Below are positions 38,049 to 43,874 of a stretch of 64,000 nt of DNA, piece by piece; the stretch's first letter is position 1; each line of letters starts with the position of its first letter. The stretch comes from Baekduia soli (GTDB taxonomy: Bacteria; Actinomycetota; Thermoleophilia; Solirubrobacterales; Solirubrobacteraceae). The DNA lies in the NCBI RefSeq assembly GCF_007970665.1, contig NZ_CP042430.1:3844001-3908000 (forward strand), read 5' to 3'. The position numbers were made by a program, and so were the translations under genes. The notes beneath the pieces were generated by a model. It saw nothing but the letters and a program-made list of their open reading frames with translations, made no database searches and was not told the DNA's origin.

Positions 38049-40648
<2,600 letters not shown>

Positions 40649-40652
<4 letters not shown>

Positions 40653-42055
40653 CCCGTGATCGTCGCAGATCCGACGATCACGTCCCCCGCGAGGAACACC
40701 GCGGTCTGGCCCGGCGCGGGCGCCGCGAACGGCGCGTCGAGCACCACGGCGCCGTCCTGGAGGCGGCAGGGCACGGGGGCGGCCCGGTAGCGCAGCTTGA
40801 CCGCGTCGACGGATGCCGCGTCGCGGTGCAGGCGCACCCCGCGCAGGGCCACACGCCGCACGCCCAGGTCCTCGCGCGGCCCGACGGTCACCGTGTTGGA
40901 TCGCGCGTCGGTGCGCACGACGTACAGCGGCTCGGGCGCGTGCACGCCGAGACCGCGCCGCTGGCCGACGGTGAAGTTGAAGTGCCCGCGGTGGCGGCCC
41001 AGCACGCGGCCCGTGCGATCCACGACGTCGCCCGGGCGCTCGTGCAGGCCGCCGTGGCGGGCCAGGAACCGCTCGCGCCCGGTGCCGGCCAGGAAGCAGA
41101 GGTCCTGGGAGTCGGGCTTGGCCGCCACGGGCAGCTCTTGCTCGCGTGCGAGCGCGCGGACCTCGGGCTTGGTGAGCTCCCCGAGCGGGAAGCGCAGGCG
41201 CGCCAGCGTCGCGCGGGAGAGCGCGGCGAGCATGTAGGTCTGGTCCTTGGCCGGGTCGGCGGCGGTGCGCAGCAGGCCGTCGGGCGCGCGCCGTGCGTAA
41301 TGCCCGGTGGCCAGGGTCGCGGCACCGAGGCGGTCGGCGAGGTCCACCATCGCGTCCAGCCGCACGTGGCCGTTGCAGCCGACGCAGGGGTTCGGGGTCA
41401 GGCCCTGCGCGTGCCCGGCCAGCCAGGGCTCCACGACGCCGGCCCGGAACGCGTCGCGCAGGTCGAGCGTCAGGTGCGGAAGGCCGAGGCGATGGGCGAC
41501 GGCGCGGGCGGCCCGCACCGCGCTGGCCGAGCAGCAGGAGCTCTCCGCGTCGTTCTCCGGATCGCGCCACAGCTCCAGCGTGACCGCGACGACCTCGGCG
41601 CCGCCCGCGCCCGCCAGCACCGCGGCGACCGCGCTGTCGACGCCTCCCGACATCGCCACGAGCGTGCGCCCCGCCGCGGGGGCGAGCTGCGCGTCGGCGG
41701 CGGCCGCGGCGCCCAGCGCCCGGTGCAGCGCGTCGGCGGCCAGGTCGGCGGCGTGCAGCTTGCCGGGGCTGAGGCCGCCCAGCGCGGCCGAGACGGCGCC
41801 GGCGCCCACGCGCGCGGCGTCCAGCAGCGACGCGCCGCGGACCAGCTCCACGACGGCGCTGCCCGCCGCCAGCGCGGCACCGCAGCCCGACGCGTCGAAG
41901 CCGGCGTCGATGACGGTGGCCCCCCGCACGGCGACGACGACCTTGACGAGGTCGCCGCAGACCGCGCCCCCGGCCGCGCCCGCGTGAGCGCCCGCCGGCG
42001 CATGGCCGCGGCCGGCCGGATGCTGGAGATGCTCCTCGAAGCGCTCGTCGGGCAC
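40649..42055 (-). CDS. mnmA: IscU/NifU-like domain fused to tRNA 2-thiouridylase MnmA
   Basis: 468 residues. Residues 1-115 match an IscU/NifU scaffold: VCGDLVKVVVAV (Cys33), DAGFDASGCGAALAAGSAVVELV (Cys58) and LSPGKLHAADLAADAL, where the third ligand cysteine of the family is Ala102. Residues 130-468 are MnmA, with PP-loop SGGVDS (136-141), TPNPCVGCN and DSQDLCFLAG holding the two catalytic cysteines. MnmA adds sulfur to U34 of Lys, Glu and Gln tRNAs. GTG 42055 lies 8 bases from TACACT, suggesting a leaderless message. Residual function of the scaffold part is unclear. Confidence 0.9.
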
Positions 42056-42113
42056 GGACCGCGAGTGTACGAGTCGTCGTCCAGGGTTTCGGACGGCGCT
42101 CAACTTCGTTGGG

Positions 42114-42887
42114 GTGGCGGCCGACAACGCGGGTGTGGACCAGGTCAGTCGCCCCATGCAGATCGCCCTCGTGGCCGTCGTGCTGCTCGCCGGCATGTGG
42201 TTCGCGGTGCTGCGGCCCAAGCCCGCGTCCGGCCCGTCGGCCGCCGCCGCGCCCGCCGCGCAGCCCACCGCCCCCGGCGTGGCCGGCCTGACCCGCGCGG
42301 TCGACCAGGCCAAGGGCGCCGCCGCCACCTCGGATGCGACCAACGGCCGCATCCAGGCCGCCACCGGCGGCTCGGCCAGCGTCACCACCCCGTCGACGTC
42401 CTCGGCGACCGGGGCCAAGGGCGCCGCGACCGCCAAGCCCAAGGCCTCCGTCACCAAGGCCACGGCCGCCAAGCCGGCGACCTCCTCGGCCGCGAGCGCG
42501 AAGGCCAAGGCCAAGGCCACCACGACGAAGGCCACGACGAAGGCCGCCACCCCGGTCGACCCGTCGACCGCCCTGCTGGCCTACCTGGCCAAGGGCAAGA
42601 TCGTCGTCCTGCTCTTCCACTCCGACGGCGCCGACGACCTCGCGGCCCGCAAGGCCGTCCACCAGCTCGCCCTGCGCGACAAGGGCGTCGTCTCCGCCTA
42701 CGCCCCGATCGCCAAGGTCGCCGACTACGAGGCGATCACGAGCGGCGTCCAGGTCTCCACGGCGCCGACGATCCTCGTCATCGGCAAGGACCACAAGGCG
42801 ACCGTGCTCACCGGCTACGTCGACGCCGCCGTGGTCGCCCAGGCCGTCGGCGACGCGCGCCGCGCCGACGGCGCCCGCAAGAAGTAG
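42114..42887 (+). CDS. Membrane-anchored thioredoxin-fold-like protein
   Basis: 257 residues. One N-terminal membrane segment (MQIALVAVVLLAGMWFAVL), a ~110-residue low-complexity linker of Ala, Thr, Lys and Ser with repeated KATT/KAKAKA units, then a thioredoxin-like domain (GKIVVLLFHSDGADDLAARKAVHQLALRDKGVVSAYAPIAKVADYEAITSGVQVSTAPTILVIG). The fold's cis-Pro (TAPT) is kept but there is no CxxC, so it cannot be a disulfide exchanger. It is divergent from mnmA and convergent with the IS element. GTG start. Confidence 0.7.
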   Translation: MAADNAGVDQVSRPMQIALVAVVLLAGMWFAVLRPKPASGPSAAAAPAAQPTAPGVAGLTRAVDQAKGAAATSDATNGRIQAATGGSASVTTPSTSSATGAKGAATAKPKASVTKATAAKPATSSAASAKAKAKATTTKATTKAATPVDPSTALLAYLAKGKIVVLLFHSDGADDLAARKAVHQLALRDKGVVSAYAPIAKVADYEAITSGVQVSTAPTILVIGKDHKATVLTGYVDAAVVAQAVGDARRADGARKK

Positions 42888-42904
42888 CCCCGTCCGGCCC
42901 CGCG

Positions 42905-42910
42905 CCTAGG
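42905..42910. repeat. Left copy of IS target duplication (CCTAGG)
   Basis: CCTAGG directly flanks the left IS end and is repeated at 43989-43994. It fits the 6-base NCTAGN duplication reported for IS481 of Bordetella. This copy supplies the transposase stop codon (TAG on the minus strand). Confidence 0.85.
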
Positions 42911-43874
42911 TGTTCTGCCTCAGGTCGTTCCGAACGCGGGTGATGGGCGGCCGGTTGCCGAGCGAGCTGTGGTTCCGCTCGTTGTTGTAGTGGTGCAGCC
43001 AGTGTGGCAGCGCTGCGGCTCTGGCGTCGCTTGAGCGGTAGCGCTGTCCCAGGCCCCATTCGCGTTTGAGGGTCTGCTGGTAGCGCTCGACCTTGCCGTT
43101 GTGGCGCGGCGTGCGGGGCGCGATCGTGCGATGCCGGATGCCGTGGCTGTCAAACAGGGCGGCCAGCGCCTTGTTGTGGGTGTAGGTCCAGGCGTTGTCG
43201 GTCTGCCAGCGCTCGATGATGATGCCGTGCGCAGCGAAGAACGCGATCGCCCGCTCGGTGAAGCCGATGACGGTGGCGGCCTTCTCGTCGCGGTGCAGCT
43301 CGGTGTAGGCCAGGCGGCTGTGGTCGTCGATCGCGCTGTGGGCGAACTCGTAGCCGACACGCTGGCGCTTCTCGGCGCCCGTGCGGTGACGGTTGCCGGT
43401 GACGGCATGGCCGGGTGAGGAGAACCGCGCGAAACGCTTGACGTCGTTTTGGATCAACGCCCCAGGGCACGGCCACTCAAAGCGCTGCACCGCCTCTCGG
43501 GGCGCCGGCGGCTGGCGCGACATGCCGCGCCGCTTCAGACAGCGCGAGACCGTCGCGTGCGCGATGCCGAGCTCGGAGGCGATCAGGCGCGGCCCCCAGC
43601 CCGTCCGCGTCCGCGCCTGGCAGACACGGTCGTGCAGCTCGTCGCTGGACCGCGTCGGCTGGCGATGCGGCGTCGAGGGTCGATCCTGCGCCCACGCGCC
43701 CGACGCTCGCTCGGCGTCTGAGGCGTTGCGGTACCGGTCGATCCAGTACTGCACCGTCGACACGCTCACCCGCCGACGGGCCGCTGCCTGGCGTCGAGGA
43801 AGTCCCTCGCCAAGACACCAATCAACCAGCTCGACACGCTGCCAGCTGGGCAGCCACCTACGCTTGCACTGCAT
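42906..43874 (-). CDS. IS481-family transposase
   Basis: 322 residues. N-terminal helix-turn-helix (VELVDWCLGEGLPRRQAAARRRVSVSTVQYWIDRY), a second HTH-like region, then an rve DDE core: IQNDVKRF (first Asp), WQTDNAWTY (second Asp) and NGKVERYQQTLKREW (Glu). The frame has no stop inside the element; it runs through the left repeat and terminates on TAG of the target duplication, the last Thr codon being half IS and half target. The ATG lies in the arm of a 13-base-pair hairpin. Confidence 0.94.
   Translation of the reverse strand: MQCKRRWLPSWQRVELVDWCLGEGLPRRQAAARRRVSVSTVQYWIDRYRNASDAERASGAWAQDRPSTPHRQPTRSSDELHDRVCQARTRTGWGPRLIASELGIAHATVSRCLKRRGMSRQPPAPREAVQRFEWPCPGALIQNDVKRFARFSSPGHAVTGNRHRTGAEKRQRVGYEFAHSAIDDHSRLAYTELHRDEKAATVIGFTERAIAFFAAHGIIIERWQTDNAWTYTHNKALAALFDSHGIRHRTIAPRTPRHNGKVERYQQTLKREWGLGQRYRSSDARAAALPHWLHHYNNERNHSSLGNRPPITRVRNDLRQNT
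42911..42936 (+). repeat. IS481-type left terminal inverted repeat
   Basis: TGTTCTGCCTCAGG followed by TCGTTCCGAACG. It also encodes the last residues of the transposase, on the minus strand. Confidence 0.88.

What the first reader, a model, noticed from the sequence alone, without database searches (positions are those of the whole stretch)
40649..42055. IscU/NifU-like scaffold fused to MnmA, with the third cysteine replaced by alanine
The first ~115 residues keep two of the three scaffold cysteines (33 and 58) and the KLH context of the third, where Cys is Ala102. A scaffold domain joined to a tRNA thiolase suggests delivery of sulfur or a cluster in cis, or a tRNA- or protein-docking relic. 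Losing one ligand argues against normal 2Fe-2S assembly.
Basis: partly seen in the sequence, partly recalled or inferred. Interest (0 to 1): 0.6.

Follow-up and report, generated by a model that had tools for sequence, protein, structure and literature searches.

The report
Remodelled scaffold domain fused to MnmA
A tRNA-thiolating enzyme in soil actinobacteria carries, fused to its front, an iron-sulfur-scaffold-like domain that lacks the residue that receives sulfur in ordinary scaffolds but keeps the four that hold a metal, so it probably helps hand sulfur to the enzyme instead of building clusters.

Summary
Residues 8-115 match Pfam NifU_N (E 1.8e-19), 131-466 are a full MnmA. The fusion is widespread: 123 fused domains, window included, were read in 13 families of the phylum, out of 180 loci. 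None keeps all five scaffold active-site residues. In the window's order, f5 and f21, 85 of 85 readable domains keep Cys33, Asp35, Cys58 and His101 and 0 of 85 have Cys at 102. In free ISCU those four hold the metal and the missing one is the persulfide receptor. Cys33 is the most durable residue (118 of 123); f9 keeps it alone, 19 of 19. The window genome has SufS and SufU; no IscS-type desulfurase was found. Best reading: a metal-bound, SufU-like module that docks the desulfurase and passes sulfur through Cys33 to MnmA in cis. Ordinary cluster assembly is unlikely. Metal binding and the sulfur path are inferred, not shown. No description of the fusion turned up in the papers searched. New variant of a known kind.

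The parts
40649..42055 (-). fused gene, 468 aa, NifU_N-like domain + MnmA
42064..42069 (-). TACACT, -10-like hexamer, 8 nt between it and the GTG start; suggests a leaderless transcript
   Evidence: inference from conservation in f1; the sigma-70 consensus scan found no promoter-like site in 41950-42950
41711..42034 (-). NifU_N/IscU-type domain, residues 8-115
   Evidence: AF2 model pLDDT 95.5, best match A. fulgidus IscU 4eb5_C Z 21.2, rmsd 1.9 over 123
41957..41959 (-). Cys33, proposed persulfide acceptor and metal ligand
   Evidence: 85 of 85 in f1-f5 and f21, 118 of 123 fused
41951..41953 (-). Asp35, proposed metal ligand
   Evidence: 85 of 85 in f1-f5 and f21, 95 of 123 fused
41882..41884 (-). 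Cys58, proposed metal ligand
   Evidence: 85 of 85 in f1-f5 and f21, 101 of 123 fused
41753..41755 (-). His101, proposed metal ligand
   Evidence: 85 of 85 in f1-f5 and f21, 81 of 123 fused
41750..41752 (-). Ala102, at the place of the scaffold's third Cys (persulfide receptor of ISCU)
   Evidence: Ala 58, Gly 26, Val 1 of 85
40658..41665 (-). MnmA part, residues 131-466
   Evidence: model matches S. pneumoniae TrmU 2hma Z 36.6 and E. coli MnmA-tRNA 2deu Z 35.4
41531..41536 (-). Cys174-Cys175, first CC of the C-type MnmA pattern
   Evidence: C174 in 99 of 101, C175 in 98 of 101 MnmA read
41375..41386 (-). Cys224-x-x-Cys227 of MnmA
   Evidence: both in 101 of 101
41096..41098 (-). Cys320 of MnmA (place of E. 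coli Cys199; equivalence by motif, recalled)
   Evidence: 101 of 101
38049..40652 (-). alaS, 867 aa by its likely GTG start, which overlaps the fusion's stop; a frequent neighbour in the class

Best explanation
The N-terminal domain is an IscU-type domain remodelled into a metal-bound sulfur-handover module for the MnmA it is fused to. Cys33, Asp35, Cys58 and His101 hold one metal ion (Zn or Fe), which keeps the fold and docks the cysteine desulfurase (SufS in this organism). Sulfur is taken on Cys33 after the metal swaps a ligand, as in SufU, and passed in cis to the Cys224/Cys227/Cys320 centre of MnmA, which thiolates U34 of tRNA. Shown here: fusion, predicted fold, invariance of the four ligand positions, absence of the receptor Cys, and no IscS-type desulfurase found in the genome by the profiles used. 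Inferred: metal binding, SufS as partner, Cys33 as acceptor, transfer to MnmA.
For: Only five of residues 1-115 are invariant over 85 domains with 46% mean pairwise identity: Cys33, Asp35, Cys58, Gly94, His101. 23 of those 85 came from loci fetched after the pattern was seen, and all 23 fit (one f21 locus dropped as out of frame, two unreadable). In free ISCU these residues ligate Fe/Zn and the missing one receives the persulfide. In Mtb SufU the Cys of CGD is the acceptor and is freed when Zn swaps to a SufS His 19 residues before the SufS Cys; the window's SufS has a His at that spacing. Cys33 outlasts the other four: 118 of 123 fused, and the only one kept in f9, 19 of 19. In the window's order 1 of 33 genomes has a TIGR03402 hit better than 1e-60, none over that model's own cut-off, while 32 of 33 have a SufU-like hit apart from the fusion. 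Plasmodium MnmA depends on SufS and has a predicted SufE-like N-terminal part. Full-length model is confident throughout (pLDDT 95.5, pTM 0.93).
Against: In human ISCU2 only the last Cys is persulfidated and the C138S variant shows no persulfide elsewhere, so Cys33 need not be an acceptor in an IscU-type fold. The domain is IscU-like, not SufU-like (SufU model 30.1 bits against 92.5; SufU Z 14.8 against IscU 21.2). f21 has the same signature beside a class I desulfurase (12 of 12 loci by motif), so the signature does not track SufS. f7 makes do with a remnant, and 6 of 16 f8 loci first fetched have no fused domain, so it is dispensable. B. subtilis YrvO feeds MnmA with no carrier, and the Plasmodium authors favour direct SufS-to-MnmA transfer. 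Metal and interface could not be tested.
Confidence: 0.47

Rival explanations
1. Acceptorless docking module: the metal site captures the desulfurase's persulfidated cysteine as in ISCU, but since the receptor Cys is gone the sulfur goes straight to an MnmA cysteine (or its cluster). The receptor has been outsourced to the fused enzyme.
For: The desulfurase Cys replaces the first scaffold Cys as metal ligand in ISCU complexes and the metal positions the Cys loop; the receptor is what is missing in 85 of 85; fusion would supply a new receptor.
Against: Does not explain why Cys33 alone survives in f9, where the other four are gone. Five of five free-standing f21 domains lack the receptor too, so it was not lost because of the fusion in that family.
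Confidence: 0.22
2. Iron or cluster donor: the domain supplies Fe or an Fe-S cluster to a C-type MnmA that works with a [4Fe-4S] cluster.
For: MnmA here is CC-CxxC-C, and T. thermophilus MnmA of that type carries a [4Fe-4S] cluster; free ISCU binds Fe with just these four residues.
Against: No fused domain of 123 keeps the full scaffold site. The genome has SufB/D-type genes and SufS/SufU to make clusters. That MnmA clusters are needed at all is disputed for E. coli.
Confidence: 0.12
3. Structural or tRNA-docking relic of an old iscS-iscU-mnmA operon, with a bound metal only for stability.
For: f6 and f27 keep an unfused desulfurase-iscU-mnmA order; f7, f14 and f32 show decay of the site.
Against: A passive relic would not be expected to keep four ligand positions invariant in 85 of 85 domains of six families at 46% identity.
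Confidence: 0.15

Closest known systems
IscU / clostridial-type NifU scaffold (PF01592, TIGR03419)
   Same: Predicted fold, length, CGD...GC...H motif, operon context (free iscU between desulfurase and mnmA in f6)
   Different: Third Cys absent, fused to MnmA, below the equivalog cut-off of TIGR03419 (75.8 against 187.9 bits)
SufU (TIGR01994), Zn-dependent sulfur acceptor of SufS
   Same: Proposed way of working: first Cys as acceptor, Asp and second Cys as ligands, SufS as desulfurase
   Different: Far below the SufU model's cut-off; His where SufU has a last Cys ligand; the genome already has a separate SufU
Plasmodium MnmA with predicted SufE-like N-terminal part (PMC10219651, passages)
   Same: A sulfur-acceptor-type region in front of MnmA, SufS as sulfur source
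   Different: SufE-like and apicoplast, predicted by modelling there, and its authors favour direct SufS-to-MnmA transfer
B. subtilis YrvO-MnmA
   Same: Desulfurase gene dedicated to MnmA
   Different: No carrier domain
T. thermophilus C-type MnmA
   Same: CC-CxxC-C cysteine pattern
   Different: No fused domain mentioned in the passages seen; the original paper is not held

Membership tests
NifU_N / IscU superfamily | Match to the Pfam NifU_N model | tested here: met
   70.6 bits against 22, residues 8-115
NifU_N / IscU superfamily | IscU fold | tested here: met
   predicted model, pLDDT 95.5; 4eb5_C Z 21.2, rmsd 1.9 over 123
IscU [2Fe-2S] scaffold | Five-residue assembly site: Cys, Asp, Cys, His, Cys | tested here: not met
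   Last Cys is Ala102; 0 of 123 fused domains keep all five, 13 of 13 free f6/f27 domains do, 0 of 5 free f21 domains do
IscU [2Fe-2S] scaffold | Assembles and transfers a cluster | not testable with these tools
   needs biochemistry
SufU | Above the TIGR01994 cut-off | tested here: not met
   30.1 against 92.5 bits, residues 8-82 only
SufU | Zn bound and first Cys persulfidated by SufS | not testable with these tools
   needs biochemistry
MnmA (TrmU) | Equivalog model, PP-loop and catalytic cysteines | tested here: met
   NF001138 338 against 284 bits; CxxC and the last Cys in 101 of 101
C-type MnmA (CC-CxxC-C) | Cys pattern | tested here: met
   definition
SufE | SufE fold with a single acceptor Cys | tested here: inconclusive
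   SufE-like CsdE 5nq6_B Z 7.6, rmsd 3.0 over 107, under the tool's own caution level; the window's domain has two Cys, f9 one

The most novel reading that the evidence does not exclude
An IscU domain has been turned, more than once, into a SufU/SufE-like persulfide carrier covalently tied to its client tRNA thiolase. The fused domains show the parts of the ISCU site taken apart by evolution: metal ligands without the receptor (80 of 80 fused in f1-f5 and f21), receptor Cys without the His (15 fused domains in f8, f10, f53, f71), and the first Cys alone (19 of 19 in f9); His and receptor Cys occur together in 0 of 123.
Probability: 0.4. Interest if true: 0.75.

Novelty: new variant of a known kind. 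Interest (0 to 1): 0.56.

Why it matters
How sulfur reaches C-type MnmA in bacteria where no Tus relay or YrvO-type desulfurase is at hand is open. A carrier-like domain tied to the enzyme makes the sulfur path testable in one polypeptide. The set of natural domains also separates, by evolution, the metal-holding and the sulfur-accepting parts of the IscU site, which biochemists have so far separated by mutation.

Tried and rejected
Ordinary [2Fe-2S] scaffold: set aside, see membership test. Wrong start codon or chance match: rejected. A replacement cysteine elsewhere in the domain: many f21 domains have an extra Cys three residues after Cys58 and many f5 domains one near position 68 (by eye); the window has neither, so no general replacement. 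Loss of the third Cys as a result of fusion: not a general rule, since 5 of 5 free f21 domains lack it, while 13 of 13 free f6/f27 domains keep it. Link between motif and desulfurase class: not consistent (f21 against f1-f4). His101 and Cys102: never together in 123 fused domains (81 His only, 15 Cys only, 27 neither), so 'never both', not 'always one'. Number of origins: one search gave at least 4 changes for the Cys-Asp-Cys-His-without-Cys state, but it counted L057, which is cut by a contig end, as lacking the domain; without the three contig-edge rows it is 3. The tree is unrooted, so repeated loss is the likely reading, not shown. Interface between the two domains: no coordinates were given, so it was not measured. 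Desulfurase neighbours were first sought by motif, which missed the two f10 genes that lie just before the fusion in the profile search. The line of 1e-60 for 'IscS-type' is mine; over the model's own cut-off are 13 of 149 genomes, none in f1-f4.

Literature: ten searches, seven of them aimed at the fusion; no listed title or abstract start describes it, but lists were capped (20 of 22, 10 of 424). Eight papers were opened, each by passages only: PMC11784392, PMC5372745, PMC8584467, PMC10219651, PMC8924461, PMC10216065, PMC11021402, PMC6544083. Not held: PMC7025502, PMC5065719. Databases of domain architectures could not be searched and may list this one.

Rows: 180 loci were read for mnmA (window; 100; 39 of 40, L179 being a 100-base slip of mine; 40). 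123 gave a fused domain. The other 57: unfused or no domain beside mnmA, the 16 f7 loci with at most a remnant, L057 and L226 cut by contig ends, L250 and L225 without a readable domain, and L248, dropped because the reading was out of frame. One f8 fused gene (G010) has a TAG inside its frame. The f7 test used 12 of 16 f7 loci, with one shuffle each, 11 of them listed.

Full report
What is there. The gene runs on the minus strand from a GTG at 42055 to a stop at 40649 and encodes 468 residues. Residues 8-115 match Pfam NifU_N at E 1.8e-19 and residues 131-466 are a complete MnmA. The best-scoring named scaffold model is the clostridial NifU (TIGR03419, E 3.6e-21), ahead of IscU (1e-14) and SufU (4.1e-7), all below their own cut-offs. 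The start is supported by a TACACT hexamer just upstream; 15 of 19 family-f1 genes have a TANNNT at that place. The stop overlaps the likely start of alaS, and alaS follows in 13 of 19 f1, 16 of 18 f5 and 11 of 12 f21 loci read by then.

How far it extends. Genomes searched here are unnamed; families are called f1, f2 and so on, f1 being the window's. A separate scan of named genomes gave 34 loci, mostly Solirubrobacteraceae, Solirubrobacterales and Thermoleophilaceae. Of 149 genomes of the class, window's included, 141 gave an MnmA match. I read 100 of these loci beside the window and 20 more later. Fused domains were read in 19 of 19 f1, 8 of 9 f2 (the ninth cut by a contig end), 3 of 3 f3, 2 of 2 f4, 23 of 24 f5, 10 of 17 f8, 19 of 19 f9 and 2 of 2 f10 loci. 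f6 is unfused in 10 of 10, with a free iscU just before mnmA in 9 of 10 and a desulfurase before that. f7 keeps a short remnant: 12 of 12 extensions tested score E under 0.01 against the domain profile, listed shuffled copies 0.09 or worse, and a profile comparison gives probability 96%.

The active site. Across 123 fused domains none keeps all five residues of the scaffold site; Cys33 is kept in 118, Cys58 in 101, Asp35 in 95, His101 in 81, the third Cys in 15. The readable domains of f1-f5 and f21, 80 fused and 5 free, all have Cys, Asp, Cys, His and none has the third Cys (Ala 58, Gly 26, Val 1). The only invariant positions among residues 1-115 are Cys33, Asp35, Cys58, Gly94 and His101, at a mean pairwise identity of 46%. 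Twenty-three of the 85 came from loci fetched after the pattern was seen. On a tree of the MnmA part the pattern needs at least three changes once contig-edge rows are left out; the tree is unrooted. f8, f10, f53 and f71 show the reverse in 15 domains: third Cys kept, His lost. f9 keeps only Cys33, 19 of 19. f14 and f32, 5 domains, are degenerate.

What the residues mean. A review and a 2024 structural paper (passages read) say that free ISCU binds Fe or Zn by the first Cys, the Asp, the second Cys and the His, that the last Cys is the persulfide receptor, and that the metal positions the desulfurase's Cys loop. In the transfer complex the first Cys and the His move off the metal and the last Cys joins it, so the division is clean for the free protein only. 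The window's domain keeps the free-state metal ligands and lacks the receptor. In SufU the acceptor is instead the Cys of CGD, freed when Zn swaps a ligand to a His of SufS (Mtb proteins). The durability of Cys33 argues for that second scheme, but human ISCU2 without its receptor was not persulfidated elsewhere. Both stay as competing models.

The cell. The window's genome has SufS and SufU side by side, two SufB/D-type genes about 9-11 kb further on, a second class-II-like desulfurase (L134), and no TIGR03402 hit better than 4e-34. In the window's order 1 of 33 genomes (G107) has a hit better than 1e-60, and 32 of 33 have a SufU-like hit. f21, with the same signature, has a class I desulfurase just upstream in 12 of 12 loci by motif, which speaks against a strict tie to SufS. 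The MnmA part is of the CC-CxxC-C type, whose T. thermophilus member carries a [4Fe-4S] cluster. Plasmodium MnmA is fed by SufS and has a predicted SufE-like front part, though its authors favour direct transfer; it is the closest analogue found.

Structure. The domain alone (58 sequences) and the full protein (63 sequences) are predicted with mean pLDDT 95.5 each and pTM 0.90 and 0.93. The last helix of the domain ends near residue 121 and the first MnmA strand starts near 127, so the linker is short. Best matches are A. fulgidus IscU from its complex with IscS (Z 21.2) and, for the MnmA part, S. pneumoniae and E. coli MnmA (Z 36.6, 35.4). A confident model does not show that the two parts work together.

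Conclusion. Not a normal cluster scaffold, and not a dead relic in this lineage. The best-supported reading is a metal-bound sulfur-handover domain for MnmA, with Cys33 as the likely acceptor. The chemistry is inferred by homology and needs the bench tests listed.

Noticed in passing
L256:93-3653:+ (G048), L257:4466-7432:- (G012); frames of 1152-1312 aa with the same profile hit for G066, G088, G112, G042, G024, G036: In family f9 a molybdopterin oxidoreductase is fused to a C-terminal class I cysteine desulfurase (Pfam Molybdopterin + Molydop_binding + Aminotran_5 in the two scanned). It suggests sulfuration of the molybdenum cofactor in cis and deserves its own study.
   Followed up: partly
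L202:4001-4384:+: A contig labelled Acidobacteriaceae encodes a free-standing 127 aa NifU_N protein with the same Cys-Asp-Cys-His signature and Ala at the third Cys; no mnmA seen among the ORFs of that 7.8 kb locus.
   Followed up: partly
window 42906-43874 (-): An ORF that reads by eye as an IS-type transposase (322 aa) lies upstream of the fused gene, behind a divergent 257 aa ORF (42114-42887 +).
   Followed up: no
L134 (G000:C1:3147840-3148988): Second class-II-like desulfurase in the genome, with active-site loop RHGCFCAHP instead of RAGHHCAQP; role unknown.
   Followed up: no
L211: A contig labelled Chlamydiae carries a fused gene 53% identical in the domain to the window's; probably a mis-assigned contig.
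   Followed up: no
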